DNA of 64,000 nucleotides from Ignavibacteriota bacterium (GTDB lineage Bacteria > Bacteroidota > Ignavibacteria > UBA10030): the NCBI GenBank assembly GCA_003170475.1, contig PMZI01000023.1, forward strand, positions 276,402-340,401, given 5' to 3'. Under the pieces are notes generated by a model. That model made no database searches and was not told where the DNA came from. It worked only from the letters and a program-made list of their open reading frames with translations. Position 1 is the stretch's first letter. Every line of letters begins with the position of its first letter. Positions 14,672 to 47,849 of the stretch are shown here, piece after piece. The position numbers were made by a program, and so were the translations under genes.

Positions 14672-14734
14672 CCCGTTGCAGTTGGAATTTCTTACGTCCC
14701 ATTTTGACATTCATTTTCAATAATCGAGGCTCCT

Positions 14735-16737: not shown

Positions 16738-16799
16738 TCCTCGATCAAGATCGTCTTTCAGGGACATCAACGGAGAGGTAGGAGAAAGGATCAGTACGC

Positions 16800-18014: not shown

Positions 18015-18041
18015 CATGAACCCACCACAAGGAGTATTGCG

Positions 18042-20038: not shown

Positions 20039-20077
20039 CGTGGTTTTGTCGCATCGGGAGAGTGGAGAGCCGGAAAC

Positions 20078-21865
20078 ATGAGATTGAGAGAACTGAAAAG
20101 AATTATCACATTCCTATGTGCATTTGTGCTGGTGGGAATCATGAATATGCGCGGACAACAAAGCAGGTGGGTTGATTCGACACTTGCCACCATGACGGTG
20201 GAAGAGAAGGTCGGACAGCTCTTCGTGGCGGATCTCGTCGCGGTCTATTCAAACAGAGAAAGTCCAAATTTCCAGCTCGCTCTTGAATGGGTGCACAAAT
20301 ACCATGTTGGAGGCTTCGTTCTTGCCGGCGGCATTGTGACGGATATTGCGTTGATGACAAACGCTCTTCAGCGTGAATCCAAAATCCCACTCCTCATTAA
20401 CGGCGATTTAGAGGGAGGGCTCTGGTTCAATCATCCTTACCGGTGGCAGAGGGGAAGAGCTCCTGAGTTGCCTAGATTCATTGGCGGTGGAGGCACATCG
20501 CTGCCGTCCCTGATGGCTATCGGAGCGACGGGTAACCCCCGGTATGCGTACGAATTTGGCAGAATAACGGGTGAAGAAGCTCGGGCAGTCGGCATTCACT
20601 GGACGAATTCGCCGGTTGCAGACGTGAACATCAATCCGAATAATCCCATTATCAACACGAGGTCGTTTGGTGAGAATCCGGCTGAAGTCGCGAGACTTGT
20701 TGAAGCATACGTACAAGGAGCGCAGTCGGCCAGATTGATGGCGACGGTGAAACACTTTCCGGGACATGGAGATACACAAGAAGACACACACATGAAACTG
20801 CCGCTGCTGCCGTTCGATCGAGCTCGGCTTGATTCGGTGGAATTTGTTCCATTCAAAGCTGGAATCCATGCAGGCGTGAAAGCTGTGATGACAGCACACA
20901 TTGCGCTGCCGAACATCGACCCGACGAACCGTCCTTCCACACTTTCACCCGTGATGATGACAGAGATTCTTCGTGGATCCCTGGGGTTCAACGGTGTCGT
21001 GGTAACCGACGGAATGACCATGCAGGGAGTGACGGACAATAACACCCCTGATGAAGCGGCAGTCAGGGCAATCGAAGCGGGGGTCGATGTTGTGCTGGTT
21101 CCTGAAGATCTCTCCAAGGCATATGATGGAGTTCTTCGTGCGGTGAAATCAGGCAGCATTTCTTCGCAACGGTTGGATCAATCTGTGCACCGGCTTCTTG
21201 AAGCAAAGTTGTGGGTTGGGCTTGACAAGCAGCGAGTCGTGAATATCGAAGACATATCGAACATTGTCGGTTCTCCCAAGGCAGAAGTGATCGCCGACTC
21301 GATGTTCAGAGATGCCGTAACCCTTCTGAGAAACGAAGGAAAAGTATTGCCGCTCAAGAAAAGGGCACGAATACACATTGTGTCGATCACTGATGAGCCC
21401 GATGTCTTTGTCGGCGAAGCCTTCGGTGACGCAATGCGAAGCGGCGTTCAATCTGCAACGATGTCGAGACTCTGGAATGGCTCGGGGAAAGAGGATATCA
21501 ACCGAGTTTCAGCGGAGCTTCGAAACACAGACGTGATCGTCCTGGGAATTTACGTTTCTATCGGTGCGTGGAAGGGTGAAAACAAATTCTCAAATGATCT
21601 AGAGGAGTTCTTCCAGAAACTTGCACGGGGCAAGAAACCCGTGGTGACCATCGCGTTTGGCGATCCGTATGTATTGAGCAAGATGCCTTTGAGCGATGGC
21701 ATGATCGCCGCGTATGCAGGACTGCGCAAATCCGAAGAAGCCGTTGGGAAAGCTCTGCTCGGTATGTCGGAAGTAGTTGGAAAACTGCCGGTGACCATTC
21801 CAGGGAGATTCAAACGCGGCAACGGTATTCATCTGATGCCGGTGCGTTCCTCGGAGGACCGATAA
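20078..21865 (+). CDS. Glycoside hydrolase family 3, beta-N-acetylhexosaminidase (NagZ-type)
   Basis: VKHFPGHGDTQEDTH (NagZ-type acid/base signature), GVVVTDGMTMQGV (nucleophile Asp), N-terminal signal segment. Confidence 0.85.
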   Translation: MRLRELKRIITFLCAFVLVGIMNMRGQQSRWVDSTLATMTVEEKVGQLFVADLVAVYSNRESPNFQLALEWVHKYHVGGFVLAGGIVTDIALMTNALQRESKIPLLINGDLEGGLWFNHPYRWQRGRAPELPRFIGGGGTSLPSLMAIGATGNPRYAYEFGRITGEEARAVGIHWTNSPVADVNINPNNPIINTRSFGENPAEVARLVEAYVQGAQSARLMATVKHFPGHGDTQEDTHMKLPLLPFDRARLDSVEFVPFKAGIHAGVKAVMTAHIALPNIDPTNRPSTLSPVMMTEILRGSLGFNGVVVTDGMTMQGVTDNNTPDEAAVRAIEAGVDVVLVPEDLSKAYDGVLRAVKSGSISSQRLDQSVHRLLEAKLWVGLDKQRVVNIEDISNIVGSPKAEVIADSMFRDAVTLLRNEGKVLPLKKRARIHIVSITDEPDVFVGEAFGDAMRSGVQSATMSRLWNGSGKEDINRVSAELRNTDVIVLGIYVSIGAWKGENKFSNDLEEFFQKLARGKKPVVTIAFGDPYVLSKMPLSDGMIAAYAGLRKSEEAVGKALLGMSEVVGKLPVTIPGRFKRGNGIHLMPVRSSEDR

Positions 21866-23856: not shown

Positions 23857-24984
23857 ATGGAAGCCATCACAAAACTTCTCTCGGATCTTGTCGCAATTCC
23901 CAGCATGAATCCCATGGGGCGGGGGCGCCTGGGGAAGGAATACTCTGAGCAGTCCATTGCAGAGTTTGTCGCAGAGTTCATGAGGAAAGCATCGATTGAT
24001 GCAGAGCTGCAGCAAGTTTCGCCCGGCAGACCAAACGTCATTGGGTTTGTCTCCGCCGGAGCGAAGGAAACGCTGATGCTGGAGGCTCATCTTGATACCG
24101 TTTTTGCAGATTCGATGCTGATCGATCCTTTCGACCCTGTCGTTCGCGATGGAAAGCTCTACGGACGCGGGGCGTGTGACACAAAAGGCTCGATAGCAGC
24201 ATTTCTACAGGCTGTGGTCAGCTCGCTCAAGGCGGCGAAGAGATTGCGCTACAATATTCTCTTGCTCTTTGTCTCGGACGAAGAGTATCGTTTTGCAGGA
24301 GCACAATACGCTGTCCGTCAGGGCCTGAATGCAAATTTTGGAATAGCTGGCGAACCAACTCAGCTCAGAATTGTGCGGGCTCACAAGGGCGTGACGCGTT
24401 GGAAGATCCTCACAAAAGGAGTCGCCGCTCATTCGGCGTATCCGGAACGAGGAAAAAATGCAATCTACGCAATGGCGAAAGTCGTTGACAGACTGCAACA
24501 ATACGCAGTCGCGCTGAGAGCGGTACATCCTCATCCGCTGTTGGGAACTCCTTCGCTGAGCGTGGGGGTCATTGAAGGCGGGCAGACGGTCAATATTGTT
24601 CCCGATCATTGCTGGATTGAAATTGACAGACGCACGCTTCCCGGTGAAATGGCAGAGGATGTTCTGAAGCCGATCCATTCTCTTCTAAGTACTCTGGAGG
24701 AGTGCGAGATTCAACAACCGCATCTCTCCGTGGCGGGCATGGAAGTCGCCGAGAGCTCTCCGATTGTTCAGATTTTGAAAGAAGCAGTAACATCCGTATG
24801 CGGAGAGGCAATCGTGGAAGCGGCACACTATGCAACAGATGCCGGCATCTACAATGCGGTTGGAGTGCCGACGGTGGTGTTTGGACCCGGGAACATCGCG
24901 CGCGCACACACAGAAGCCGAGTACGTCGAACTTGAACAGCTTCAGCAGGCAACTACAATCATTGAAAGGCTCCTCTCATCGTGA
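23857..24984 (+). CDS. M20 family metallo-deacylase (ArgE/DapE-like)
   Basis: LMLEAHLDTVFAD, LYGRGACDTKGSIAAFLQA, LLFVSDEEYRFAGA. Confidence 0.9.
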   Translation: MEAITKLLSDLVAIPSMNPMGRGRLGKEYSEQSIAEFVAEFMRKASIDAELQQVSPGRPNVIGFVSAGAKETLMLEAHLDTVFADSMLIDPFDPVVRDGKLYGRGACDTKGSIAAFLQAVVSSLKAAKRLRYNILLLFVSDEEYRFAGAQYAVRQGLNANFGIAGEPTQLRIVRAHKGVTRWKILTKGVAAHSAYPERGKNAIYAMAKVVDRLQQYAVALRAVHPHPLLGTPSLSVGVIEGGQTVNIVPDHCWIEIDRRTLPGEMAEDVLKPIHSLLSTLEECEIQQPHLSVAGMEVAESSPIVQILKEAVTSVCGEAIVEAAHYATDAGIYNAVGVPTVVFGPGNIARAHTEAEYVELEQLQQATTIIERLLSS

Positions 24985-25904
24985 TTCTTGGCCTGGACAT
25001 TGGCGGTACCAAAACAGCGGTTGTGATCGGAACAACTCGCGGAGAGATTCTCTCGCGGAAACAATTTCCGACGATGCCTCAGCGTGGATTTCAACCGGTG
25101 TTTGACGAATTGGCCGCATGCATCCGTGAAGTTCTTTCGAGTTCCCCCGGTCGCGTCGATGCAATCAGTGTCGCTATCGGCGGTCCGCTGAACGTCTTGA
25201 AAGGAATTGTCCAATCTCCGCCGAATCTGCCCGGATGGGACAACATTCCGTTGAAGCGGCTGCTCGAGGAAAAATTCGACCTTCCCGTCTATGTGGAGCA
25301 CGATGGAAACGCCGGTGCGCTCGCCGAGTTCTATTTTGGAGCCGGGAAAGGATATCGAAATATCGTATTCCTTACGATGGGAACGGGTTTTGGAGCCGGC
25401 CTGATTCTCGACGGAAAACTCTATCGTGGGGCGAATGATACAGCGGGAGAAATCGGTCACATCCGCATTGCTGAGGAAGGTCCGCTCTGCTATGGAAAGG
25501 CAGGCTCCCTGGAAGGGTTTGGCAGCGGAACCGGCATGGCAAAACTGGCCCATCTAATGTTTCCCACCAAGTGGAGTGAGACGATCAATGTTCTTGACCT
25601 CTATTCGTCGTTCAGAAGTGGATCACTCGAAGCGCGCCAGGTATTTGAACGTGCCGGATTCCACTTGGGACGCTGCTTCGCGATGATTGCCGATCTGTTG
25701 AACCCGGAACGCATTATTCTCGGGGGGCTTGGAATGCGGATTGGTGACGCATTTCTTCCCAAAGCGGAGGAGATCTTTCAACTGGAAGCTCTGGCCCAGA
25801 CAACGCAAGCATGCAAGATTGTCCCGGCACAACTGGGAGAACACATCGGAGATATCGCCTCTCTCTGTGCCGCTCTCGATCAAGGAGTATTGCTTAACAA
25901 GTAA
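24981..25904 (+). CDS. ROK family sugar kinase
   Basis: ILGLDIGGTKTAVVI, VYVEHDGNAGALAEFYFGAG, FLTMGTGFGAGLILDG, GEIGHI. CPLC-type ROK zinc motif not seen. Confidence 0.9.
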   Translation: MILGLDIGGTKTAVVIGTTRGEILSRKQFPTMPQRGFQPVFDELAACIREVLSSSPGRVDAISVAIGGPLNVLKGIVQSPPNLPGWDNIPLKRLLEEKFDLPVYVEHDGNAGALAEFYFGAGKGYRNIVFLTMGTGFGAGLILDGKLYRGANDTAGEIGHIRIAEEGPLCYGKAGSLEGFGSGTGMAKLAHLMFPTKWSETINVLDLYSSFRSGSLEARQVFERAGFHLGRCFAMIADLLNPERIILGGLGMRIGDAFLPKAEEIFQLEALAQTTQACKIVPAQLGEHIGDIASLCAALDQGVLLNK

Positions 25905-25960
25905 GCATCCATGAAATGAATTGCGGCCGGATGGACCTGAACGACCGCCGAGGAATTCGC

Positions 25961-28207
25961 ATGACGACCAGAATGAACAAAGTGCTTCTTATCACTCTTT
26001 TCTGTATCAGTTCCACCTTGTCCCAGAAGTCTGCGTATCTGGAGCAGATAAAGAACGCAGCGGAACAGGGTTGGCGCGACAATCCCCGCATCATCGAGCA
26101 ATGGAAACGCGACTACAAACCGAGTACTCTTTGGGGATACAACTCCCCCGGCTATCCCGTGTATCTTGCCGGAACCATGGGATTTCTGTATGAAATAACG
26201 AAAGATGAGACGTATGCGCGCCGAACGGCAGAGTTGCTGGTTTCGTACGGCGAGCTCCGGAATTCGTATCCGAAAGATTACTGGAAAACACGCGCGGAGT
26301 ATGCCAACGGAATTCCGGCGATCTCGAATTTCTTCTTCATGCCGCCCTACATACGCGCATATCTCAGAATACGGAACAGTGGCGCTCTGACAGATCAGTC
26401 CCGTCAAACCATTGAAGAAGACATCGCCGGGAGCGCAGACTTCGTTTTCTTCTTTCCGGAGTGGGGGACGCACAATAGAGCAATGCTTCGGGCCGAGGCG
26501 TTAATCTATGCCGCGCAAGCGCTTCCTCATCATCCACATGCCGCGAAGTGGAAACACATGGCTCAGATTCTCGCGGACGACAGTATGAAGCAGTGGGAGA
26601 TCGAAGACGCAACGGTGTACCACCCGGTTTGGTTGACATCTCTCTACTCCTATGCCGATGCTACCAATCAACCCGATCTCTTCGATTCACCCCTCACAAA
26701 ATATTACCAGAAATATTTCTTGAAACTCATCGGACCGCACGGCATTGTGCCGGAATTCGGAGACGCTCGATGGGCGTCAGGACTGGAGGGGTTGAGATTC
26801 GTTGCGATTTTTGAAAAGGGGGCGGCTGTCTACAAAGATCCGGAACTCAAATGGGCCGCTCAGTCGGTGTTTGAAGCTGCGAAACGAAACAACCCGCAGA
26901 TCGGTGTGGGAGAGGCGTACTATCTCTCTGACGCATACCGCTGGACAGATGAATCTATACAACCGAGACAACCAAAGAGTCTCTCCCAGGAAGTTCTGGA
27001 AGATGTTGTCGGCAAGAAAATGGTTTTCCGCAACGGATGGGATCCGACGAGCACCTATATGTTGCTCAATTATCGTGATGAGGGGGACGGTGGTTGGACG
27101 TATCGGGAATTTCTTCGCCAGACGATCTCTGTGGAAGAGGAGAAAATGACTCATGGTCATGCGGATGAGAACAGTATTCCGCTTCTGATGAGCGAGGGTT
27201 CACTCCTTCTGCATGACGCTGACTACAGGAGCGATCTGCCGAGCGGCCCGTATGGAGCCTGGCGGCAGGACTATTTTCACAATCGGCTTGTGGCGCGGAC
27301 GGGCAAGCGGGACAGCCATCAGGCGCTCTTGGAGTTCGTTCAAAACTCCGGCGCTTATCGTGCCGTTCGAACCCAAAAGATTGACTTCCTCAATCTCAAA
27401 GAAGTCGACATGAGCCGCACGCGGGTTATTGATGAAGACCTCGGCTATCAATCCGATCGCGTTATCACCTATGTCAAAGAAGAAAACTGGTTCGTCGTTG
27501 TCGACGCGGTGAAGATACTCCGTTCAGGATACTACACTTTTTCAACCATGTGGCACGCTTTGAATCTGCTGGCAAAAGGCAAAGACTACTTCGACGTGGC
27601 AACAGATTCCATTCAGGGGGTCAAGTTCTCGACGAAGAGTTCGTTGCTTATGGTCTTTCCGGAAACATATGCAAAGACCATTGGCGTTGAACCGATTTCA
27701 CGAAGCAATCAGAAAGAACAAGCAATTTATCAAACCATCTCGAGTCAATACAAAGCAGGCGACACAGAATTGTTCGTGACCGTGCTGATTCCCCATCGGC
27801 GCGACGTCAGCATTGAAGACTTGAAGTCCAGGATCAAACTCGTGGATGTGAGTGCTCCATATCGGGCCGTCGGACTTCAACTCGATCGCAAGGATCGGAC
27901 CTCCACCCTCTGTGTAAAAGTCGATCAAGCTATGGATATTGCACGAGAAAACATACGTCCACGATATCTGTACGCACTCGGCAAAGTGGTATATGGCGAC
28001 TTTGAAACAGATGCCCATTTCATGTTCGCGACAGTAAACAAGGGAAGCGTCACTTATTCTGCTGCCAATGTTCTCAAGGTCCTCTACAAAGGAAAACCTC
28101 TGATGGAAGCCCTTGCGGACACACACGGCTTGCAGCTTGACGGATCACCCGATCGGGTCGGTTACGTCAAGTGGAGATACTGGGAAGATACCGTTGAACA
28201 GAAATGA
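25961..28207 (+). CDS. Exported heparinase II/III-like polysaccharide lyase-fold protein
   Basis: Signal peptide MNKVLLITLFCISSTLSQ; EEEKMTHGHADENSIPLLMSEGSLLLHDADYRS and YYTFSTMWHALN. The ORF track begins at 25916. Confidence 0.7.
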   Translation: MTTRMNKVLLITLFCISSTLSQKSAYLEQIKNAAEQGWRDNPRIIEQWKRDYKPSTLWGYNSPGYPVYLAGTMGFLYEITKDETYARRTAELLVSYGELRNSYPKDYWKTRAEYANGIPAISNFFFMPPYIRAYLRIRNSGALTDQSRQTIEEDIAGSADFVFFFPEWGTHNRAMLRAEALIYAAQALPHHPHAAKWKHMAQILADDSMKQWEIEDATVYHPVWLTSLYSYADATNQPDLFDSPLTKYYQKYFLKLIGPHGIVPEFGDARWASGLEGLRFVAIFEKGAAVYKDPELKWAAQSVFEAAKRNNPQIGVGEAYYLSDAYRWTDESIQPRQPKSLSQEVLEDVVGKKMVFRNGWDPTSTYMLLNYRDEGDGGWTYREFLRQTISVEEEKMTHGHADENSIPLLMSEGSLLLHDADYRSDLPSGPYGAWRQDYFHNRLVARTGKRDSHQALLEFVQNSGAYRAVRTQKIDFLNLKEVDMSRTRVIDEDLGYQSDRVITYVKEENWFVVVDAVKILRSGYYTFSTMWHALNLLAKGKDYFDVATDSIQGVKFSTKSSLLMVFPETYAKTIGVEPISRSNQKEQAIYQTISSQYKAGDTELFVTVLIPHRRDVSIEDLKSRIKLVDVSAPYRAVGLQLDRKDRTSTLCVKVDQAMDIARENIRPRYLYALGKVVYGDFETDAHFMFATVNKGSVTYSAANVLKVLYKGKPLMEALADTHGLQLDGSPDRVGYVKWRYWEDTVEQK

Positions 28208-28228: not shown

Positions 28229-29167
28229 ATGGTAACGACAGTTACACTGAATCCCATGCTCGATAAAACGATTTACGTCGATCGGGTGGAGCGTGGAGCG
28301 ATTCATCGTGCCTCCAAGATGGAGATGGTCGCCGGGGGGAAGGGGATCAATGTGTCGCGCCAGCTCAAGCATTTGGGAATCAAGACCGTCGCGACAGGAT
28401 TCCTGGGGGGCGAAGTTGGTTCCATCGTGTCGCGATTGTTGAAAGAAGAATCGATTGAGCAGGACTTCGTTCGCACGGAGGCTGCGACACGAGAGGGATT
28501 TACGCACCTTGAGCCCGATGGGACCTGGACAGCTCTATTTGAACCGGCACTCCCCGTTGAGCAATCGGCTGTTCATGAATTGAACAAGAAGATTACCGAG
28601 CTTGCCTCGAAGAGCACCTGGATTGTCTGTGGCGGAAGTTCTCCGGGGAATGAAGCGGATGATATTTTTCATGAAGCACTGCTTCTTGCGCACCGGATCG
28701 GTATCTCGAGTGTGCTCGATTCTTACGGTCGCGCGTTTGAGCTGGGACTCAAGGCGCAGCCCACCGTGGTAAAACCGAATAAGCGGGAATTTGAGATGAC
28801 GTTTCACCAATCGCTGACGACGGAAGCAGAGCATGTCCACGCGGTCCGATTTCTGCTCGAACAAGGCGCTCGGTACAGCATTCTCACCGACGGCGGAAAC
28901 GCGTTCTATGCCGGCATTCAAGGACACTTCTGGAAAGTCACGCCGCCCCAGACGAAGACGGTAAATCCCACTGGGTCAGGAGACGCTCTCGTGGCCGGCA
29001 TCCTGTATGGATTTCATCAGGGTTGGAAGTTCGAAAGGTGCCTGATTTTTGGCGCGGCAACGGGGGCAGCAAATGCAAGCATGTGGGGGGTCGCAAACTC
29101 AAGTCTGCCAGAAATCTTAACTCTTGAAGCAAATGTCAGGATCCAACGAGTGAGCGTGAAAATATGA
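28229..29167 (+). CDS. 1-phosphofructokinase / tagatose-6-phosphate kinase-like PfkB kinase
   Basis: VTLNPMLDKTIYVD, MVAGGKGINVSRQLKHLG, VNPTGSGDALVAG. Confidence 0.88.
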   Translation: MVTTVTLNPMLDKTIYVDRVERGAIHRASKMEMVAGGKGINVSRQLKHLGIKTVATGFLGGEVGSIVSRLLKEESIEQDFVRTEAATREGFTHLEPDGTWTALFEPALPVEQSAVHELNKKITELASKSTWIVCGGSSPGNEADDIFHEALLLAHRIGISSVLDSYGRAFELGLKAQPTVVKPNKREFEMTFHQSLTTEAEHVHAVRFLLEQGARYSILTDGGNAFYAGIQGHFWKVTPPQTKTVNPTGSGDALVAGILYGFHQGWKFERCLIFGAATGAANASMWGVANSSLPEILTLEANVRIQRVSVKI

Positions 29168-30195
29168 ACAGAAGATTAGAACAAGCCTTGGAGTGTGAAC
29201 GCCCCGATCGCATTCCGTTCTTGCCCGCGATCTACGAACACAAAGCCTGGTTTATCGGCGAAACACCTTCAGCTGTGTGTCGGGATCCGCACCTCCTCAC
29301 CAAGGCCCTTCTCGCTGAGTATGAGCGTGTTCAGCCGGACGCGCTGACGATCGGGATTGATGTGTATAATGTGGAGGCAGAGGCGATCGGATGCAAGGTG
29401 ATCTACTACGAAGGAGAAAACACGTCGGTTCCTGCAATAGCGCCCGAAAGCGTGGTGTTTCGGGGCTCAGAGGAAGTCGTATCTCTCAAGATGCCTGATC
29501 CCCAAAAAGACGGTAGAATGCCGTTGAATCTCGAGGTTGCTCGAAACATCATGAAGGTTCTTGGCAAGGAGATTCCGATCCGCGCTGCCCTCTCGGGTCC
29601 ATTTTCACTCGCGGCGCACTTGACCGGACTGGAGAATCTCTTCATGCTTGTGTTCACCCGGCCCAATCTGGTCCACGAGCTTCTTGATTTTGCCAGCGAA
29701 GTGATCAAGCGATATGGCCAAGCCTTCATTGAACTTGGCTGCGGCGTTGTGGTTTTTGATTCCCAGTCTTCCACTGAGCTTCTTTCGCCACTTGTGTACC
29801 GTGAATTTGTCCTCCCAAGAACTCGAGAGTTGATTGAATACTTCCACCAGCAGGGTGTCCGGAACGTTCCTCTGATTATTGGAGGGAATACGACGAAAAT
29901 GCTGGATGAATATCTCGAGACCGGGGCCAACAACGTGCTGTGCGATGCAAGAGCTGATGTGACGGAGTTTCTGCACAAGTGTTCCGCCGCCCGGAGAGCA
30001 TTCAGGCGGAACATGGATTCCACCGATTTTCTGACGCTCTCTTCTGAAGATATCTACCACCGCACAGTCGACTGTCTGAAGGAATCGAACGGCTATCCCG
30101 GCTTCATTCTTGGCACGGTGATACTACCGTATGGAACGCCGATGACGGCTCTTGATGCAGTTCGGAGCGCACTTCAGGAATACAAACATTTGTGA
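29164..30195 (+). CDS. Uroporphyrinogen decarboxylase-family protein (MtaA/MtbA/CmuA superfamily), probable corrinoid methyltransferase partner
   Basis: RRLEQALECERPDRIPFLPAIYEH, ALSGPFSLAAHL, VFDSQSSTELLSPLVYREFVLP, GGNTTKMLDEYLETGANNV; directly upstream of corrinoid protein. Confidence 0.8.
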   Translation: MNRRLEQALECERPDRIPFLPAIYEHKAWFIGETPSAVCRDPHLLTKALLAEYERVQPDALTIGIDVYNVEAEAIGCKVIYYEGENTSVPAIAPESVVFRGSEEVVSLKMPDPQKDGRMPLNLEVARNIMKVLGKEIPIRAALSGPFSLAAHLTGLENLFMLVFTRPNLVHELLDFASEVIKRYGQAFIELGCGVVVFDSQSSTELLSPLVYREFVLPRTRELIEYFHQQGVRNVPLIIGGNTTKMLDEYLETGANNVLCDARADVTEFLHKCSAARRAFRRNMDSTDFLTLSSEDIYHRTVDCLKESNGYPGFILGTVILPYGTPMTALDAVRSALQEYKHL

Positions 30196-30211
30196 GACGG
30201 ACCGGGGCATT

Positions 30212-30853
30212 ATGAAAGAATTGCTTGATCTTTCCCAGCTTATAGAACAGGGACAATCACAAAAAGCGTTGACCCTGACACAGCAATTGGTGAATTCGGG
30301 ACTCCCCTCGCAAACCATTCTCAATGATGGATTGATTGCCGGAATGGCGGTGGTTGGAGAGAAAATGCGGAATGGCGACATGTACTTGCCTGAAGTTTTG
30401 CAGTCTGCCGGGGCGATGAAAGCTTCACTGGCGATACTTAAACCACTTCTTGCCCTTGAGGGAACAAAATCGCGGGGAAAGATCCTCATTGGTACGGTGA
30501 AGGGGGATATGCACGACATAGGAAAGAACCTCGTCAGCATCATGTTGCAAGGGGCGGGATTTGAGATCGTTGACATCGGCTGCAACGCGGATCCTCAGAG
30601 ATTTGTATCGGCCATTGCGGAACACGCCCCGGAGATCGTCGGACTATCGGCAATGTTGACAACGACGATGCTGAATATGAAAACGACGATCGATGCCATT
30701 GCGGGGGCAGGGCTTCGATCAAAGGTAAAAATTATTATCGGCGGGGCTCCCGTCAGTCAAAAATTCGCAGACGAGATTGGCGCAGACGGCTATTCACGCG
30801 ATGCCGTCCTTGCTGTTGACAAAGTAAAACAATTCATGGACCGCACCTCTTAA
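30212..30853 (+). CDS. Corrinoid protein, MtaC/MtbC-type methyl carrier
   Basis: GTVKGDMHDIGKNLVSIMLQGAGFEIVDIG (DxHxxG cobalamin motif), helical N-terminal cap domain. Start refined from 30152. Confidence 0.9.
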   Translation: MKELLDLSQLIEQGQSQKALTLTQQLVNSGLPSQTILNDGLIAGMAVVGEKMRNGDMYLPEVLQSAGAMKASLAILKPLLALEGTKSRGKILIGTVKGDMHDIGKNLVSIMLQGAGFEIVDIGCNADPQRFVSAIAEHAPEIVGLSAMLTTTMLNMKTTIDAIAGAGLRSKVKIIIGGAPVSQKFADEIGADGYSRDAVLAVDKVKQFMDRTS

Positions 30854-30876
30854 CCAAGACAGATGGAACTCAGCAG

Positions 30877-32250
30877 ATGAAGAAGACGTTCAAGACGCTC
30901 GCAATTCCCGATCCACAACAACTGATGTTTGGTCGAACCCCCAATCCCATGACCTGTGGCTTTGGGCTCACGCTGGGAAACGGTCAGGTTTTTCCTGAGC
31001 TAAACTTCACACTTCCAACCATGGCGTTGGAACAGACAAACTGGCCTGCCGTCGTTGCCCAGTATGAGGAAATAGGATCAATCATCGAACGGGCTGCAGC
31101 AAGACTGAAACCACCGGGTTTGATGGCGGAGTTTGAGCTTCTTCCTCCGATGACAGAACATCCATCGTGGGGGGCGGAGCTGACATCGGTGCTTCTCAAG
31201 CATCTTGATCAACTGCACAAGGATACCGGTATTCCATGCGCCTTGCGTGTTACCCCGACGGACATCAGAGATGTCACAAAACCCCCGGAGCTGAGGTCCG
31301 GAAAACCACTCGAACTCTTGCTGCAATCCTTCGAACAGTGCGCAGCGGCAGGAGCTCATGTGCTCTCAATCGAATCAGTAGGTGGAAAAGAAGTCCACGA
31401 TGAAGCCCTGCTGTATGGAGATATCGAAGGGGTGATTTTTGCGCTCGGTGTGCTCGCGTCACGGGATATGGAATTTCTTTGGGAGAGAATCATCGCTACG
31501 TGTTCGAAGCACAAGGTTGTGCCGGGGGGCGATTCGGCCTGTGGTTTTGCCAACACGGCGATGCAACTCGCTGGACAAGGAATGCTCCCGGAAGTCCTCG
31601 CCTCCGTTGTTCGCGCTGCGAGTTCCGTTCGCAGCCTTGTCGCATATGAATGCGGTGCCTACGGACCATCGAAGGACTGTGCGTATGAGGGTCCGGTGAT
31701 CAAGGCAATCACGGGGGCACCGATTGCCATGGAAGGAAAATCGGCAAGTTGTGCGCACTTCAGCCCGGTAGGAAACGTCGCAGCCGCGATGTGCGATTTG
31801 TGGAGCAACGAATCCGTGCAAAACGTGAGATTGCTCTCCGGCCCCGCGCCTGAAGCATATTTCGAATTGCTCGTCTATGACTGCCGTCTCTTCAATCAGG
31901 CCCTGGAGACAAAAACAGAAAACGTCTACCAGAATCTTCTCGTCTCATCCGATATCCATTTGAGTCCTCAGGCATATGTGTTGTCGCCGCAATCGACGTC
32001 ACGGATCGCTTCGGCCATTGTGCGGGAGTCAGGCCACTACGCCCAAACGCTTGCGGCAGCCAGAGAGGCAGCAACTCTCCTACGAGAAGGAGTTCAACGA
32101 AAAGAGCTGCAATTGAACCCGCGAGAAACCGAATGGCTGGAGAGAATCACGCGGGAGTTGAACGCTCTTCCTTCCGATGAGCAACAGATGATTGTGACGA
32201 TGCAGGACCGGTACGGCCACCTTTTTGCAGCTAATAGCTATGGCTTGTGA
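30877..32250 (+). CDS. mtaB: MtaB-type methanol:corrinoid methyltransferase
   Basis: MFGRTPNPMTCGFGLTLGNGQVFPELNFTLP, SIESVGGKEVHDEAL, GGDSACGFANTAMQLA, KDCAYEGPVIKAITGAPIAMEGKSASCAHFSPVGN, LWSNESVQNVRLL match recalled MtaB family sequence including E/C/C metal-site regions. Confidence 0.82.
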   Translation: MKKTFKTLAIPDPQQLMFGRTPNPMTCGFGLTLGNGQVFPELNFTLPTMALEQTNWPAVVAQYEEIGSIIERAAARLKPPGLMAEFELLPPMTEHPSWGAELTSVLLKHLDQLHKDTGIPCALRVTPTDIRDVTKPPELRSGKPLELLLQSFEQCAAAGAHVLSIESVGGKEVHDEALLYGDIEGVIFALGVLASRDMEFLWERIIATCSKHKVVPGGDSACGFANTAMQLAGQGMLPEVLASVVRAASSVRSLVAYECGAYGPSKDCAYEGPVIKAITGAPIAMEGKSASCAHFSPVGNVAAAMCDLWSNESVQNVRLLSGPAPEAYFELLVYDCRLFNQALETKTENVYQNLLVSSDIHLSPQAYVLSPQSTSRIASAIVRESGHYAQTLAAAREAATLLREGVQRKELQLNPRETEWLERITRELNALPSDEQQMIVTMQDRYGHLFAANSYGL

Positions 32251-32337: not shown

Positions 32338-34671
32338 ATGCCAACGATTTTTGATCTACTGACTCAGACAAAGACTATCCACACCACCGCCTCGCCTCTC
32401 AAGGTCGAGCAGACGGTCGCTCAGGAATTGAAGACCCTGATCGGCGGCCGGGTAGACATCAAACAAGTCGCGGGATTGAACGCGCCTTCCGGAACGGTAA
32501 GGCTTGCCGTCGTCCCGGAGAAATCCAAGTGGCGGTCAATCCATCCGTCTCTTGATGGGGCGAAGGATTGGATGATGGTGAGAGTGAAGAATGGGGGTGG
32601 GGTCGAGATCCTTGCGTCACGTCCACACTTGCTCTTCTACCTTTTCGCTCAACTGACGGAGAATTGGAAGGGAGAAGGCATCGAGAAGTTCACGGATGGC
32701 AGGATTCTTCATCCATCCTTCCGCAATCTTCGTCCGGTCTACGATCTCTTCCTCACGCAGCATGCACGAACGGTGCGCAATTTCGATCGTGAAGAACACA
32801 TTCGCAACCTGGCCCGCCTGGGTTTCTCGCATGCAGAAGTCAACGGACTGGCGTTCGCCGTTCCGTTTGAGCGCGGTCCCCAGGGGGAACTGCTCCATCG
32901 GTTCTATACGTACTGCCCGTCCCTGGATCAATTCGTCTCCAGCCGTCTGAACAAAGGCACCTATGATGACGACTACTTGCAGGCGAACATGAACTTCCTG
33001 AAGACCAATGCCGCCCTTGCTCAGAAATATGGGCTTGAACCCGGTATGGTGTGCTTTGAGCCGCGGTCCGTCCCTGACAACCTGCTAGAGAAATATCCCA
33101 TGCTGCGTGGTGCCCGCGTCGATCATCCGATTCGAAGCTGGCATCCACGGTACAATCTCTCTATTGCGCATCCGGTGGTACGGGAGCACTATGCAGAGAT
33201 GATGGAGAAAATCCTTCGGGAAGTGCCGAGCCTCGGGTACATCTCCATCTGGTCGAATGACAGCGGCGCCGGGTTTGAATACACGAGTTCACTATATGTG
33301 GGGCGCAACGGCGGCGGCTATGTCATTCGCGAATGGAAAGGCGATACTGAAATTGCAGAATCGGCCGCCAATAACCTGATGCGTTTCCAACGGCTCCTTC
33401 GGGACGCCGGCCGAAAAGTCAATCCAAAATTCCGCTCCCTGATACGGCTGGAACCCTTCTGGGCGGAACATGAATACATTTGGAAGCAACTGGAAGAAGG
33501 CCTTGATGTTGAAGTGTCGTCGTTGTTGACGAAGGGCTGGGGACTGGCGTACAAACATCCAAAGTATAAAGAGGCCAGGGAAATTCACGGCACTGCGCTG
33601 CACAACAAATTTGTTGACGCTGAAAAGCCGGTTCTTGAAGAACTTCGGCAGAAGAAATCAGAAGCCGATGTCTATTTCAATCCTGGCATTATCTGGAACC
33701 ACGAACCACTCATCGGCGTTCCCTTCCCGCAACTCGTCTATGACAAGCTGGCGGATATGTACAAGCAGGGCGTAACAACCCCCTGCTACAATGGGAGTGC
33801 AACGCCTCAATCGTTCGCACCCTACAACATTAACCAGGAAGTAGTGCGGGCCTTTCAGGGTGACAGCGCATTGAACCTTGAGGCCTTTCTCCACAAAAAG
33901 GCGGCAGAGTGGATTGGCGAACCCCTTGCCGCTGATCTGGTGAAAGTCTGGAACCACTCGGATGAGGCCTACCGGTCATTTCCAATCCCCATCTGGATCT
34001 ATTCCTCATGGGGAAACTGGTATCGTCTCCCGACTCGACCTATCGTTCCAAACGTCGAGGCGATTTCGGAAAAGGATCGCGACTATTACGAAACATTCCT
34101 GCTGGCGACATCTCACAACCGATGCAGGGTAGACTTCCGGTATGACGTGGGATTCGATCTCGTCGACCCTGCTCATGCATTGCATTGCGTGAAACTGATC
34201 GATCGTGACCTTTTCCCGCACATGGAAGCAGCATTGAAACTGCTTCGCCACATGAAAGACCGAGCGACAACGGACGCAGCGCTCGCCTGCATTACGGACG
34301 TGACGGATAGAATGCTGGGATTGTACTGCTGGTATCGAACGCAACGCAATGTGGCAGCATGGGTGGCAGGGGTGCACGGCTATCTGGAATCGAAAGATAA
34401 GAAAGTCAGAAAAGAATGCCGGAAACTCCTGAAAGAGATGGTGCTGGATGAAATCGAAAACACGAAACAGTTGCTGGAACTCTGGGAAACGTCCAAGACC
34501 AATTGGATGATTCTTTCTGCGGTGGGCGAGACAACGTTTATCTACTACGACAATTTTGGCGAGCAGTTGAAGCGGAAGATCGCCCTGATGAAGGGACATG
34601 AGAACGATGAGCCGTATGTAGATCCGAACTTTCAATGGCGTGTGCCGGGATTCACTGATAGGAAGGCATAA
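32338..34671 (+). CDS. Large cytoplasmic glycosidase-like protein (GH20/GH67/GH84-like N-terminal domain plus probable TIM barrel), family uncertain
   Basis: N-terminal alpha/beta domain then DREEHIRNLARLGFSHAEVNGL, GYISIWSNDSGAGFEYTSSLY; no signal peptide. Confidence 0.45.
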   Translation: MPTIFDLLTQTKTIHTTASPLKVEQTVAQELKTLIGGRVDIKQVAGLNAPSGTVRLAVVPEKSKWRSIHPSLDGAKDWMMVRVKNGGGVEILASRPHLLFYLFAQLTENWKGEGIEKFTDGRILHPSFRNLRPVYDLFLTQHARTVRNFDREEHIRNLARLGFSHAEVNGLAFAVPFERGPQGELLHRFYTYCPSLDQFVSSRLNKGTYDDDYLQANMNFLKTNAALAQKYGLEPGMVCFEPRSVPDNLLEKYPMLRGARVDHPIRSWHPRYNLSIAHPVVREHYAEMMEKILREVPSLGYISIWSNDSGAGFEYTSSLYVGRNGGGYVIREWKGDTEIAESAANNLMRFQRLLRDAGRKVNPKFRSLIRLEPFWAEHEYIWKQLEEGLDVEVSSLLTKGWGLAYKHPKYKEAREIHGTALHNKFVDAEKPVLEELRQKKSEADVYFNPGIIWNHEPLIGVPFPQLVYDKLADMYKQGVTTPCYNGSATPQSFAPYNINQEVVRAFQGDSALNLEAFLHKKAAEWIGEPLAADLVKVWNHSDEAYRSFPIPIWIYSSWGNWYRLPTRPIVPNVEAISEKDRDYYETFLLATSHNRCRVDFRYDVGFDLVDPAHALHCVKLIDRDLFPHMEAALKLLRHMKDRATTDAALACITDVTDRMLGLYCWYRTQRNVAAWVAGVHGYLESKDKKVRKECRKLLKEMVLDEIENTKQLLELWETSKTNWMILSAVGETTFIYYDNFGEQLKRKIALMKGHENDEPYVDPNFQWRVPGFTDRKA

Positions 34672-34700: not shown

Positions 34701-35861
34701 ATGGTATTGCCGAAGAAAATTATTCTAGCGCCAGATTCATTCAAGAGCTCCCTGACTGCTCACGAGGCAGCTTCTGCTATGGAGCAGGGAGTGTTGCAAT
34801 TGCTTCCGGATGCTCACGTCATCAAGCATCCCGTCTCTGACGGCGGTGAAGGGCTGGTGAGTGTTGTCACCCCGGCGCTGGGTGGTTGCATTGTGACAAC
34901 GAATGTTGCAGGACCATTACCGGGTCAGCGCGTTGATGCTCGATGGGGCCTGTCTTCAGATGGATCGTTGGCTATTATCGAGATGGCAGAAGCGGCGGGA
35001 TTGAGTCTCGTTCCTATCGATCGACGTGATCCAAAAATCACAACGACCTATGGAGTCGGAGAGCTTATCCGGGCCGCTCTGGATGCAGGAGTTTCTTCTA
35101 TTCTGATTGGAATCGGCGGGAGCGCCACCAACGACGCCGGTGCCGGGATGGCAGAGGCACTCGGTGTCAAATTTTTCAATGCAAGCGGGAAGTCGTTGGA
35201 TCGCGGCGGAGCAGCCCTTGTTGACATTGTGTCTGTTGATGATCAGGGAAAAGATGCGCGCTTGGACAACGTTGAAATTCTGGTCGCGTGTGATGTCCAG
35301 AATACGCTATGCGGCATTGAGGGAGCATCCGCGGTGTATGGTCCGCAAAAAGGGGCAAGGCTGTCCGATGTCTCTCTATTGGACAAAGCACTTCTTCGAT
35401 TCGGCAAAACGGTTCAGACCGATCTCGGTATGGATGTGCTGAATCTCCCCGGAGGCGGCGCGGCCGGAGGCATGGGAGCCGGACTGGTTGCATTTTGCGG
35501 CGCGACATTGAAGCGAGGGATTGATCTTGTATTGCAGCTCACCGGATTTGATGATTGCCTTCAGGGCGCAGATTTTGTTATTACGGGCGAGGGTAGAATT
35601 GACCGACAGGTAAGATTCGGGAAGGCGTTATCGGGCGTTGTCGAGCAGGCGAGACGCAGCAACATTCCGGTGGCAGCCGTTGTCGGCTCCATCGAAGGAT
35701 CCCGCGAGTCTTTTTTAAATGACGGTTTTCTGGATGACCTTGAACCGCTTGTCGATGCCCATACTTCGATCGAAGAAGCAATGCGCAACGCTCAGACGCT
35801 CATTGCCGAGAGAACCAAACTGTTGATTCAACGGTATTTAAGTCGTAAGTACAACGATTGA
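34701..35861 (+). CDS. Glycerate 2-kinase (GarK/GlxK family)
   Basis: KIILAPDSFKSSLTAHEAASAMEQG, VSDGGEGLV, IGIGGSATNDAGAGMAEALG, GGAAGGMGAGL. Confidence 0.93.
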   Translation: MVLPKKIILAPDSFKSSLTAHEAASAMEQGVLQLLPDAHVIKHPVSDGGEGLVSVVTPALGGCIVTTNVAGPLPGQRVDARWGLSSDGSLAIIEMAEAAGLSLVPIDRRDPKITTTYGVGELIRAALDAGVSSILIGIGGSATNDAGAGMAEALGVKFFNASGKSLDRGGAALVDIVSVDDQGKDARLDNVEILVACDVQNTLCGIEGASAVYGPQKGARLSDVSLLDKALLRFGKTVQTDLGMDVLNLPGGGAAGGMGAGLVAFCGATLKRGIDLVLQLTGFDDCLQGADFVITGEGRIDRQVRFGKALSGVVEQARRSNIPVAAVVGSIEGSRESFLNDGFLDDLEPLVDAHTSIEEAMRNAQTLIAERTKLLIQRYLSRKYND

Positions 35862-35910: not shown

Positions 35911-36828
35911 ATGAAGAAACCATCTCGGTTGGTTGATACGCTTGCTGTTGGTTTTCTTGCGCTGGTATGGGGGTTCGCGTGGCCTGTAGCCAAAATTGGC
36001 CTGCGCGATTGTGATCCCTTTTTGCTTGCCAGCCTTCGTAGTATCGTTGGAGGCATTTTTCTGTTCTTTTGGCGGCTCCGTAAGTCCGATAAAGAACAAT
36101 TCACACGACGCACACTCTGGGTGTCATTCGTTGCCGGGACATGTTGGGTAGGAATCCCCATGGCTTTCACGTCGTGGGCTCTCCTCTACATCAACGTTGG
36201 CCTTGGCTCTATTCTTCAAAGCACAACCCCATTTTTCGTGGCAATCAGTGCCTATTTTCTGCTCGATGAGAAACAGTTCTCATTCGCCAAAATCGCAGGC
36301 CTTGTGCTAGGATTTCTTGGAATCGTTGCTCTTTTTTCGGACAAGCCGATCACGGACATTACCAGCCTGACCGTTCTCGCAGCGCTTGCTGTCCTGATCC
36401 CTTCGGTACTAAACGGCTATGGTCAGGTGTACGCTCGCAAGCACTTCCACGGGAATGACCAGTTTGGATTTATGACAGTCATTTTGATTATCGCGGGACT
36501 TGAATCGCTGCCTTTCAGCTTTCTCAACGGTATGCCGAAAGTCACCCCGACCGTCGATCTGGTCTTTGCCGTTCTCTATTTGGGAATTGTCGCTTCAGCG
36601 ATTCCATTTGCAGTGTACTTTGCGCTTCTTGTTCGTGTCGATGTTGTCATTCTTTCCATGGTGGGGTACGTTATTCCGGTCGTCGCTGTCGCGTCGGGCA
36701 TGATTTTGTTTGGTGAACGAATGTCCCCACCGGAAATGGCTGGGTCCATTATGGTCATTGTCGGCGTTGTCTTAGCCACGCAATATGATCTTGTGAAGTC
36801 TAAATTCCTGTCCCGGCAAACCTCGTAA
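35911..36828 (+). CDS. EamA/DMT-family transporter
   Basis: About 10 hydrophobic segments; FLALVWGFAWPVAKIGL; PVVAVASGMILFGERMSPPEMAGSIMVIVGV. Confidence 0.9.
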   Translation: MKKPSRLVDTLAVGFLALVWGFAWPVAKIGLRDCDPFLLASLRSIVGGIFLFFWRLRKSDKEQFTRRTLWVSFVAGTCWVGIPMAFTSWALLYINVGLGSILQSTTPFFVAISAYFLLDEKQFSFAKIAGLVLGFLGIVALFSDKPITDITSLTVLAALAVLIPSVLNGYGQVYARKHFHGNDQFGFMTVILIIAGLESLPFSFLNGMPKVTPTVDLVFAVLYLGIVASAIPFAVYFALLVRVDVVILSMVGYVIPVVAVASGMILFGERMSPPEMAGSIMVIVGVVLATQYDLVKSKFLSRQTS

Positions 36829-36839
36829 AGGGATCTCTC

Positions 36840-37751
36840 ATGATTCGCATTGGTCTGGTTGACCTCGATACATCCCATCCAAAAGCCTTCACGAAAATCT
36901 TGAACGGAATGCCCGGTGTAAAAGTGAATGCTCTTTGGGACGGCCGCGACGTGTGGCCGGAGGGATATGATGATCAGTTCGCTCGAGAAAATGACATTCC
37001 CCATGTTTGCAAGAAGCTCGAAGACATGCTCGAGCACGTGGATGCGGTGATGATCCACGGGGTGAACTGGGATAAACATGTTGACCGGGCGTATCCATTC
37101 CTCGAAGCAAAGAAACCGGTTTTGATTGATAAGCCGATGGTCGGGAAGGTGCGGGACATCTACGCCCTTCTCGAACTGCACGTAACTCACGGCACGCCGG
37201 TGTTCGGAGGATCTGCGCTGCGGTATGCACAGGAGATTCCTCTGCTTCGGTCGCAGGCGGACCGCATCGGGGAAGTATCGACCGTCGTTGCTACCGGGCC
37301 CGGCGACTTTTTCAGCTACGGAATTCATACAACAGAACTTGCGCAAGGAATGATCGGTACGGGCGCGAACTATGTCGAGTACGTCGCTGAGAACAAATCA
37401 TCCTTTGTCGCCGTCACCTATCACAATGGATTTGTGCTGATGTTGCAGCTCCAGCAGCCTTTTCACGAGTGGTCGATGTGTTTGTATTCTGCAACGGGTA
37501 TGCATACCGTGCGAATTGATCCCAGCCATATGTATGAGGCGTTTCTGCAACACTTCATCGACATGGTAAATGGAAAGGAAATACCTTTCACGCTCGAAGC
37601 ACCGCTGGAGGCGGTGAAAATCCACATTGCAGCGAAATTGTCCCGGCAACACGGCGGAAAAATATATCTTTCGGAAATTCCTGCCGAAGAAGGGTTCGAT
37701 GGGGCGGCCTATGCGGCAGAATATGCAGCAGCGAAACGAAGAGGTGCGTGA
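36840..37751 (+). CDS. Gfo/Idh/MocA-like oxidoreductase
   Basis: Rossmann-like N-terminus MIRIGLVDLDTSHPKAF, VMIHGVNWDKHVDRAYPFLEAKKPVLIDKPMVG. Confidence 0.75.
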   Translation: MIRIGLVDLDTSHPKAFTKILNGMPGVKVNALWDGRDVWPEGYDDQFARENDIPHVCKKLEDMLEHVDAVMIHGVNWDKHVDRAYPFLEAKKPVLIDKPMVGKVRDIYALLELHVTHGTPVFGGSALRYAQEIPLLRSQADRIGEVSTVVATGPGDFFSYGIHTTELAQGMIGTGANYVEYVAENKSSFVAVTYHNGFVLMLQLQQPFHEWSMCLYSATGMHTVRIDPSHMYEAFLQHFIDMVNGKEIPFTLEAPLEAVKIHIAAKLSRQHGGKIYLSEIPAEEGFDGAAYAAEYAAAKRRGA

Positions 37752-37754
37752 TTT

Positions 37755-38633
37755 ATGAAAAGAGGCGACCCACGGGGTGTCATTCTCGCTGCCGGCATTT
37801 CATCGAGGATGAAATCTCCTCCCATCGATGCGCGTCTTGATCCCGAGCTTGTGAAGCAAGCCGAGGAGAGAACGAAGGGAATGATCAGTGTCGGTGAAGG
37901 AGGCAGGCCGTTTCTTGACTACCTCCTCTCGAACATGAAGCAAGCGGGTATTGATGACGTCGTGATCATTGTGGGGGAAAAGGACGAGGTGTTGCGGGGA
38001 TATTATGGGTTGAAGGATCGCGACAACCCTTTCCATGGTCTTCGTATATCGTATGCGATCCAGCGTATTCCCGAGGGACGAAAGAAACCGTTGGGTACCT
38101 CGGACGCGTTGATGCAGGCACTTTTGGTTCGGCCCGACTGGAAAGGGGGCGACTTCATTGTCTGCAACAGCGATAACCTCTATTCTGTTCGCGTCTTCAC
38201 AATGCTGCTCGACTGTGATGCTCCGAATTCCCTGATCGATTATGATCGTTCAGGATTGGAATTTGCCGAGACAAGAATCGCCCAATTTGGCATTACCAAA
38301 AAGGACAAAGACGGGTACCTTCTGGAAATTGTTGAAAAGCCGCCACTCGAAGAACTCGAGCGACTGCGCAGTGCAGATGGGAGTCTCAGGGTGAGCATGA
38401 ACATCTTTCGTTTGAACTACGATATGATTTTCAATCCGCTCAGAGATTGTCCTGAGAGCCCGGTGCGTCATGAAAAAGAACTGGTCACGGCAGTAACGGC
38501 AATGGTGAAACTCCATCCGCGAACATTGAAAGCGCTGCCTCTCAAAGAGCACGTTCCGGATCTTACCTACAAAGACGATATTGCAGTAACAAGTGAATAC
38601 CTCCGGAAACACTATTCCACTCTGGACTGGTAG
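37755..38633 (+). CDS. Sugar-phosphate nucleotidyltransferase-like protein
   Basis: GVILAAGISSRM, VIIVGEKDEVLRGYYG, GGDFIVCNSDNLYS, LEIVEKPP. Confidence 0.8.
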   Translation: MKRGDPRGVILAAGISSRMKSPPIDARLDPELVKQAEERTKGMISVGEGGRPFLDYLLSNMKQAGIDDVVIIVGEKDEVLRGYYGLKDRDNPFHGLRISYAIQRIPEGRKKPLGTSDALMQALLVRPDWKGGDFIVCNSDNLYSVRVFTMLLDCDAPNSLIDYDRSGLEFAETRIAQFGITKKDKDGYLLEIVEKPPLEELERLRSADGSLRVSMNIFRLNYDMIFNPLRDCPESPVRHEKELVTAVTAMVKLHPRTLKALPLKEHVPDLTYKDDIAVTSEYLRKHYSTLDW

Positions 38634-38681
38634 TCATCGGTTCGAAACTACACTCAACCCTCAGCGAGCATCAGAGAATCC

Positions 38682-44167: not shown

Positions 44168-44201
44168 TGCATATTTATGCATAATCATGTATAATTATGC
44201 A
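44168..44201. promoter_or_regulatory. Tandem ArgR (ARG-box-like) operator upstream of argC
   Basis: TGCATATTTATGCA (44168-44181) and TGTATAATTATGCA (44188-44201), imperfect palindromes, 20 bp centre to centre. Confidence 0.65.
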
Positions 44202-44214
44202 TAACAAAGAAAGG

Positions 44215-47317: not shown

Positions 47318-47334
47318 CCAACAGGCCTCCGCCT

Positions 47335-47796: not shown

Positions 47797-47849
47797 AACA
47801 GGGACGTTGTGATTGAACATTCGTACATGCTTACCTTGAGGAGACAACC

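What the first reader, a model, noticed from the sequence alone, without database searches (positions are those of the whole stretch)
29164..32250. Corrinoid methyltransferase cassette (UroD-type / MtaC / MtaB) embedded in a glycan-catabolic cluster
Three consecutive genes encode a UroD-family protein, a DxHxxG corrinoid carrier and a very MtaB-like protein retaining the metal-site regions (IESVGG, GDSACGFANTAM, EGKSASCAH). MtaABC systems are known for methanol use in methanogens and acetogens; here the neighbours are glycosidases, sugar kinases and a polysaccharide-lyase-like protein. Inference: the cluster may harvest methyl groups released from methylated or methyl-esterified glycans, or transfer methyl from another substrate. 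No corrinoid reductive activase or pterin-binding methyltransferase is seen in the window.
Basis: partly seen in the sequence, partly recalled or inferred. Interest (0 to 1): 0.78.

Follow-up and report, generated by a model that had tools for sequence, protein, structure and literature searches.

The report
MtaB-like demethylase in glycan-degradation island
A vitamin-B12-based methyl-transfer module, a distant cousin of the methanol system of methane-makers, sits inside a carbohydrate-degrading gene island of an Ignavibacteria-type bacterium and of many relatives, and may let anaerobes strip and reuse methyl groups from plant or microbial glycans.

Summary
Three tightly spaced + strand genes encode a UroD/MtaA-fold protein (29164-30195), a two-domain corrinoid protein (30212-30853) and an MtaB-family protein (30877-32250; PF12176, 518 bits). 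The zinc ligands Glu/Cys/Cys (E166, C222, C268) are present here and in all 95 clade members examined. Two inferences need correcting. (1) It is not a methanol MtaABC set: the MtaB forms a separate, strongly supported clade across about 11 bacterial phyla, with different residues beside the zinc cysteine, and the UroD protein has lost MtaA's HxC...C zinc triad in every relative. (2) The missing parts exist elsewhere in the genome: a RACo activase, a pterin-binding methyltransferase with MetF/MetV, and homocysteine methyltransferases, but no FTHFS or acetyl-CoA synthase. The glycan link holds. MtaB co-occurs with the island's heparinase-like and GH138/GH67-like proteins, and one related contig carries MtaB, corrinoid protein, RACo, DUF1638 and homocysteine methyltransferase within about 21 kb of the same island. 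Best reading: corrinoid-dependent removal of a glycan-derived O-methyl group, passed to homocysteine or THF. The substrate is inferred; methanol is not excluded. New variant of a known kind.

The parts
29164..30195 (+). UroD/MtaA-fold protein, 343 aa, without the MtaA zinc triad (reads PLIIGGN where MtaA has LHICGN; C-terminal Cys replaced)
   Evidence: PF01208 171 bits; TIGR01463 115 bits, below its 235.4 cut-off; AF2 model pLDDT 85, best PDB match MtaA 4ay7/4ay8, TM 0.85-0.87; triad lost in all relatives
30212..30853 (+). Two-domain corrinoid (B12) protein, 213 aa, DxHxxG motif; closest solved structure Moorella 1y80
30877..32250 (+). MtaB-family zinc corrinoid methyltransferase, 457 aa; Zn ligands E166, C222, C268
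   Evidence: PF12176 518 bits; 2i2x_A E 7e-92; ligands invariant in 19 and in 95 sequences; separate clade
32338..34671 (+). 777-aa protein without a Pfam match; fold suggests a GH138/GH67/GH115/GH84-like glycosidase; adjacent to MtaB in relatives
   Evidence: pLDDT 68.5; best 6hzg GH138, TM about 0.5; then GH84, GH67, GH115; co-occurs with MtaB, 26 of 33 genomes against 15 of 358
28229..29167 (+). PfkB-family hexose kinase, start-stop overlap with the UroD gene
   Evidence: PF00294, TIGR03168 above cut-off
25916..28207 (+). Heparinase II/III-like protein
   Evidence: PF16889, 22.5 bits against cut-off 22; co-occurs with MtaB, 21 of 33 genomes against 11 of 358
24981..25904 (+). ROK family sugar kinase; beside MtaB in some relatives
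   Evidence: PF00480, synteny
23857..24984 (+). M20 family peptidase/deacylase; beside MtaB in some relatives
   Evidence: PF01546, synteny
34701..35861 (+). Glycerate kinase
   Evidence: TIGR00045 above cut-off
35911..36828 (+). EamA-family transporter of the conserved island
   Evidence: PF00892, synteny
36840..40148 (+). Gfo/Idh-like oxidoreductase, nucleotidyltransferase and GHMP kinase of the conserved island
   Evidence: synteny
11987..21865 (+). Upstream part of the island: GH38, DeoC/LacD-type aldolase, Gfo/Idh, DUF455 protein, FAA hydrolase, MR/MLE enolase-superfamily protein, GH3
   Evidence: Pfam; largely conserved upstream of the MtaB region in G242 and G204 (L098, L099)

Best explanation
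The cassette is a corrinoid-dependent demethylation module. The MtaB-like protein uses its Glu/Cys/Cys zinc to polarise the oxygen of a methyl donor, most likely an O-methyl ether or ester group on a sugar or uronic acid released by the island. It transfers the CH3 to Co(I) of the adjacent corrinoid protein. The RACo activase encoded elsewhere in the genome rescues oxidised corrinoid. The methyl group then goes to homocysteine (HMT or MetH) and/or to tetrahydrofolate (pterin-binding methyltransferase plus MetF/MetV), not to coenzyme M and not to acetyl-CoA. The UroD-like protein is a partner without the MtaA zinc site, either a second substrate-side methyltransferase or a substrate/corrinoid-handling subunit, and not an MtaA thiol methyltransferase. 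Shown here: the gene set, intact zinc ligands, loss of the MtaA triad, the activase and acceptor enzymes in the genome, and conserved linkage to the glycan island. Inferred: substrate, direction, acceptor and the UroD role. The confidence given is for the whole statement with a glycan-derived O-methyl donor other than free methanol; for a zinc/corrinoid methyltransferase in general I would say about 0.85.
For: Zinc ligands E166/C222/C268 invariant in 95 of 95 members of the clade. Cassette order UROD-corrinoid-MtaB conserved at 60-94% identity in the genus, in further genera of the same family and in family f12 of the class. RACo (PF14574, PF17651, Fer2), pterin-binding methyltransferase, MetV (PF12225), MetF (PF02219) and further corrinoid proteins in the own genome. 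G264 contig C50 carries M20-MtaB-ROK-UroD-heparinase-like-aldolase, then the 777-aa protein and glycerate kinase, then RACo-DUF1638-HMT-corrinoid protein, all within about 21 kb. G015 carries corrinoid-HMT-MtaB-253 aa-RACo. In 38 of 67 loci outside the Ignavibacteria-type island another corrinoid methyl-transfer gene lies in the held locus. MtaB presence in 391 genomes of the class tracks RACo (21/33 against 22/358), the 777-aa protein (26/33 against 15/358) and the heparinase-like protein (21/33 against 11/358), Fisher p 6e-15 to 8e-24. The 777-aa fold is nearest GH138 (RG-II), then GH84/GH67/GH115; GH67/GH115 substrates carry 4-O-methyl-glucuronate (established knowledge). Pocket-flanking columns differ from M. 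barkeri and a canonical-like bacterial MtaB (A221 for D/S, F224 for Q/H, F86 for T/N, P90 for Q/F).
Against: No substrate is shown. Outside the Ignavibacteria-type island glycan genes near MtaB are only modestly represented (GH2 in 3, sugar transporters in a few of 99 neighbours), and in many Acidobacteriota and Verrucomicrobiota loci MtaB stands alone. Several genomes with MtaB and corrinoid protein lack a detected RACo, some nearly complete (G002, G065, G078, G124). Only two canonical-side MtaB sequences were available for the pocket comparison. The 777-aa model is of moderate confidence (pLDDT 68.5; TM about 0.5). Co-occurrence statistics are inflated by relatedness (33 MtaB genomes in 18 genera).
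Confidence: 0.45

Rival explanations
1. Ordinary methanol:corrinoid methyltransferase. The MtaB-like protein uses methanol released from pectin or other methyl esters; the sequence divergence reflects only a different corrinoid partner and phylum.
For: All zinc ligands and 38% identity to M. barkeri MtaB. Acidobacteriota of Stordalen Mire express genes called mtaB and interpreted as methanol genes (PMC10805028); several loci here are Acidobacteriaceae MAGs labelled fen, bog and palsa, possibly from that site. A pectinesterase gene with a UroD gene next to it lies elsewhere on the same contig (C14, L036).
Against: Separate clade on a long branch; NF040651 388-430 bits against 658 for a canonical-like bacterial MtaB; conserved changes beside the zinc cysteine; UroD partner without the MtaA triad; no pectinesterase among the window genes scanned with Pfam.
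Confidence: 0.33
2. The UroD-like protein is the real substrate methyltransferase, zinc-free as reported for CdmB and the Moorella O-demethylase, acting on a methoxylated compound; MtaB acts on a second donor and both share the corrinoid protein.
For: UroD-superfamily donor methyltransferases can be zinc-free (PMC13222342). 19 UroD paralogues in the genome, several beside glycosidase or sugar genes. G004 has UroD-corrinoid-HMT-DUF1638-RACo in one locus without MtaB there.
Against: MtaB and the corrinoid protein persist in relatives whose UroD type changes or is absent; the best structural match of the UroD model is MtaA rather than an O-demethylase, though CdmB may not be in the library.
Confidence: 0.14
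3. A non-glycan methyl donor (methylated sulfur, amine or aromatic) feeding methionine regeneration; location in the island is historical.
For: HMT, MetH activation-like domains and DUF1638 recur beside MtaB-like genes.
Against: Conserved embedding and co-occurrence with island enzymes in the class; zinc-site MtaB chemistry fits C-O donors (established knowledge).
Confidence: 0.08

Closest known systems
MtaB of Methanosarcina barkeri (PDB 2i2x chain A), methanol:corrinoid methyltransferase
   Same: Same family PF12176, full-length alignment, identical zinc ligands Glu/Cys/Cys
   Different: 38% identity; separate clade; pocket-flanking residues changed (D to A at 221, Q to F at 224, T to F at 86, Q to P at 90, window numbering); partners differ
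MtaA / soluble CoM methyltransferases (4ay7), UroD superfamily
   Same: Same fold, TM about 0.86
   Different: HxC and C-terminal Cys zinc triad lost in all relatives of the window protein
Moorella corrinoid protein 1y80; MtgC/MtbC-type corrinoid proteins
   Same: Two-domain B12 protein with DxHxxG; E 4e-63 to 1y80
   Different: Below the cut-off of every NCBIfam model matched, including MtaC (113 against 420 bits)
RACo/RamA reductive activases
   Same: Genome copy has Fer2, RACo middle and C-terminal domains
   Different: Not in the window; lies in a rhamnose cluster on contig C46
Type 1 mlp gene clusters (Kountz and Balskus, PMC10418091)
   Same: UroD-superfamily protein plus corrinoid protein, and an activase in the genome
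   Different: Those have several Mlps with an activase in the cluster; here one UroD without the zinc triad plus MtaB, and glycan genes around
P450-based oxidative demethylation of 6-O-methyl-galactose in marine bacteria (PMC10033563)
   Same: Removes an O-methyl group from a sugar during polysaccharide use
   Different: Oxidative, releases formaldehyde; here an anaerobic corrinoid route is proposed

Membership tests
MtaB (methanol:corrinoid methyltransferase) | PF12176 full-length match | tested here: met
   518 bits, positions 2-459 of 460
MtaB (methanol:corrinoid methyltransferase) | Zinc ligands Glu/Cys/Cys | tested here: met
   E166, C222, C268; invariant in 95 of 95
MtaB (methanol:corrinoid methyltransferase) | Methanogen MtaB equivalog NF040651 cut-off (720 bits) | tested here: not met
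   429.5 bits; a canonical-like bacterial MtaB scores 657.8, also below
MtaB (methanol:corrinoid methyltransferase) | Groups with canonical MtaB in a tree | tested here: not met
   95 sequences including the window are separated from M. barkeri and L096, SH-aLRT 100; only two canonical-side sequences, both on long branches
MtaB (methanol:corrinoid methyltransferase) | Methanol activity | not testable with these tools
   needs biochemistry
MtaC | Two B12-binding domains with DxHxxG | tested here: met
MtaC | MtaC equivalog cut-off | tested here: not met
   113 against 420 bits
MtaA (methylcobamide:thiol methyltransferase) | HxC...C zinc triad | tested here: not met
   IIGGN and VILPYG in the window; lost in 11 of 11 aligned proteins and in 2 more distant ones
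MtaA (methylcobamide:thiol methyltransferase) | UroD-superfamily fold | tested here: met
   TM about 0.86 to 4ay7/4ay8
UroD-type O-demethylases (MtvB, OdmB, VdmB, CdmB) | Sequence clustering with these proteins | not tested
Three-component corrinoid methyltransferase system | MT-I, corrinoid protein, MT-II candidate and activase in one genome | tested here: met
   window; which protein is the MT-II is not established
Acetogenic methanol use (Wood-Ljungdahl pathway) | Formyl-THF synthetase and acetyl-CoA synthase | tested here: not met
   no PF01268 or PF03598 hit in the genome, 96% complete

The most novel reading that the evidence does not exclude
A previously unrecognised subfamily of zinc/corrinoid methyltransferases, matching the MtaB (methanol) family model in about 11 phyla, that removes O-methyl groups from glycan-derived sugars or uronic acids without oxygen and feeds them to homocysteine/THF: an anaerobic counterpart of the P450 sugar demethylases.
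Probability: 0.4. Interest if true: 0.8.

Novelty: new variant of a known kind. Interest (0 to 1): 0.6.

Why it matters
Methylated sugars (4-O-methyl-glucuronate in xylan, 2-O-methyl-fucose and 2-O-methyl-xylose in RG-II, methylated algal and bacterial glycans) are common, and the bacterial sugar O-demethylation described in the papers found here needs oxygen. A corrinoid route in polysaccharide-degrading phyla would explain how anaerobes clear these blocks and would tie glycan decay to one-carbon metabolism. It also means that environmental surveys reading 'mtaB' as methanol use in Acidobacteriota and similar phyla may be misassigning the substrate, which bears on methanol and methane budgets in peat.

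Tried and rejected
A search for canonical MtaB in plasmids found nothing, so only M. barkeri and L096 represent the canonical side. A census of MtaB neighbours in other phyla was run to see whether the glycan link is general; it is not strong there, so I did not extend the sugar-demethylation claim to the whole subfamily. Acetogenesis was rejected. MtaA identity for the UroD protein was rejected on the zinc triad. Literature searches for corrinoid demethylation of sugars in the held open-access library found no such system; subscription papers were not searched.
Full report
WHAT IS THERE. The three genes are real, on the + strand and at the stated coordinates. The UroD-type gene (29164-30195) starts inside the stop codon of a PfkB kinase gene, the corrinoid protein gene starts 17 bases after it, and the MtaB gene starts 24 bases after that, which looks like one operon. 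Family scores are decisive: PF01208 E 4e-50, B12-binding domains 1e-28 and 3e-17, PF12176 E 2e-155; 2i2x chain A E 7e-92. Aligned to M. barkeri MtaB, the zinc ligands E164, C220 and C269 (known from the structure; from memory) correspond to window E166, C222 and C268.

WHOSE GENOME. The window is a stretch of a 4.08 Mb, 85-contig genome, 96% complete. The nearest named relative by MtaB is an Ignavibacteriales MAG labelled LacPavin (94%). The genome has one MtaB, 19 URO-D paralogues, one RACo-type activase with Fer2, middle and C-terminal domains, a 1231-codon MetH-type gene, three homocysteine-methyltransferase-type matches, MetH included, and a four-gene module on contig C45: pterin-binding methyltransferase, MetV-like, MetF and corrinoid protein. 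A further corrinoid protein lies on C27 near UroD and HMT genes. No formyl-THF synthetase and no acetyl-CoA synthase was found, so acetogenesis is unlikely.

A SEPARATE MTAB SUBFAMILY. In a tree of 97 sequences, 95 including the window are separated from M. barkeri MtaB and from L096, a canonical-like bacterial MtaB beside a RACo-family gene and a corrinoid protein gene, with support 100 on a long branch. Scores against the methanogen MtaB model agree: 388-430 bits for four clade members, 658 for L096. Zinc ligands are invariant in all 95, but columns next to them change together: A221 where canonical has D/S, F224 for Q/H, F86 for T/N, P90 for Q/F, S296 for D, P297 for V/L. This keeps the chemistry and probably alters the pocket. 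The weakness is that only two canonical-side sequences were available.

THE UROD PROTEIN IS NOT AN MTAA. An AlphaFold2 model (pLDDT 85) matches MtaA from M. mazei best (TM about 0.86). But MtaA's HxC motif (LHICGN) reads LIIGGN in the window protein and LIIGGN, LIVGGN or LVIGGN in its relatives, and the C-terminal cysteine is gone. Triad-bearing UroD proteins exist elsewhere in the genome (L022:7457, L024:9935, L026:9471), and next to RACo in G013 and G359, so a thiol methyltransferase could be supplied from there. Zinc-free UroD-family donor enzymes are known (CdmB and the Moorella O-demethylase; PMC13222342), which leaves a substrate-side role possible.

THE ISLAND. In the same genus and in G307 of the same family the order M20 - ROK - heparinase II/III-like - (PfkB) - UROD - corrinoid - MtaB - 777-aa protein - glycerate kinase - EamA - Gfo/Idh - nucleotidyltransferase - GHMP kinase is kept as far as the contigs reach. 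In G264 and G278 MtaB sits directly between the M20 and ROK genes. A KSB1-labelled contig has GH3 - ROK - heparinase-like - UroD - MtaB (L144). The strongest single locus is G264 contig C50: MtaB, ROK, UroD, heparinase-like, aldolase, 777-aa protein and glycerate kinase, then RACo, DUF1638, homocysteine methyltransferase and corrinoid protein on the other strand, within about 21 kb. Across 391 genomes of the class, MtaB presence tracks the 777-aa protein (26/33 against 15/358), the heparinase-like protein (21/33 against 11/358) and RACo (21/33 against 22/358), with p of 6e-15 or smaller. These counts are not phylogenetically independent; the 33 genomes fall in 18 genera, 13 of which have the 777-aa protein in an MtaB-bearing genome. 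The 777-aa protein has no Pfam match; its model (pLDDT 68.5, so tentative) is nearest GH138, which acts on pectin RG-II, then GH84, GH67 and GH115. Some substrates of these families carry O-methyl sugars (established knowledge).

OUTSIDE THE ISLAND. In 38 of 67 loci from other phyla another corrinoid methyl-transfer gene (corrinoid protein, RACo, DUF1638, HMT, UroD, MetH activation-like) is in the held locus, which supports a corrinoid methyltransferase function for the subfamily. Glycan genes are only modestly represented there, and many copies stand alone. The substrate may differ between lineages.

MECHANISM AND CONFIDENCE. Most likely: zinc-assisted transfer of a methyl group from an oxygen of a glycan-derived donor to Co(I) of the corrinoid protein, reactivation by RACo, and passage to homocysteine or THF. 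The corrinoid methyltransferase function is about 0.85 likely, a glycan-derived O-methyl donor other than free methanol about 0.45, methanol about 0.33. Literature in the held library treats Acidobacteriota mtaB as methanol genes (PMC10805028), and the sugar demethylation it describes is by P450 (PMC10033563).

VERDICT. A real and conserved system, correctly spotted, with its family labels in need of correction. New variant of a known kind; interest 0.6.

Noticed in passing
G000 contig C46 (L022:7457-18505): The genome's RACo activase lies at the end of a rhamnose cluster with alpha-L-rhamnosidase, L-rhamnose isomerase, a kinase and two UroD paralogues (one with the MtaA-type triad).
   Followed up: partly
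G000, 19 loci: 19 URO-D family paralogues, many beside glycosidases, sugar transporters or kinases: GH29 fucosidase (L030), pectinesterase (L036), ABC sugar transporter (L026), GH43-like (L027), a paralogue of the 777-aa protein (L038). Their functions are unknown.
   Followed up: partly
L142, L141, L146, L145, L164: Proteins resembling the MetH activation domain beside MtaB-like genes; L142 has RACo, corrinoid protein, MtaB, activation-like domain and HMT in a row, like a dismantled MetH with a new methyl donor.
   Followed up: no
L120 (13692-14795), L111: A protein resembling the C-terminal half of MetE (core-MetE-like, by eye) near MtaB-like and corrinoid genes; could be an alternative methyl acceptor enzyme.
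   Followed up: no
L233 (G004:C29): UroD-UroD-corrinoid-HMT-DUF1638-RACo-transporter-UroD-UroD locus without MtaB: probably the same system with UroD as donor enzyme.
   Followed up: no
window 16800-18014: DUF455/ferritin-like protein conserved in the island; role unknown.
   Followed up: no
window 44197-49106 and 54649-56040: Arginine biosynthesis genes (by eye, from ORF order and sequence beginnings: argC, argJ, argB, argR, argG and later argH) just downstream of the island.
   Followed up: no
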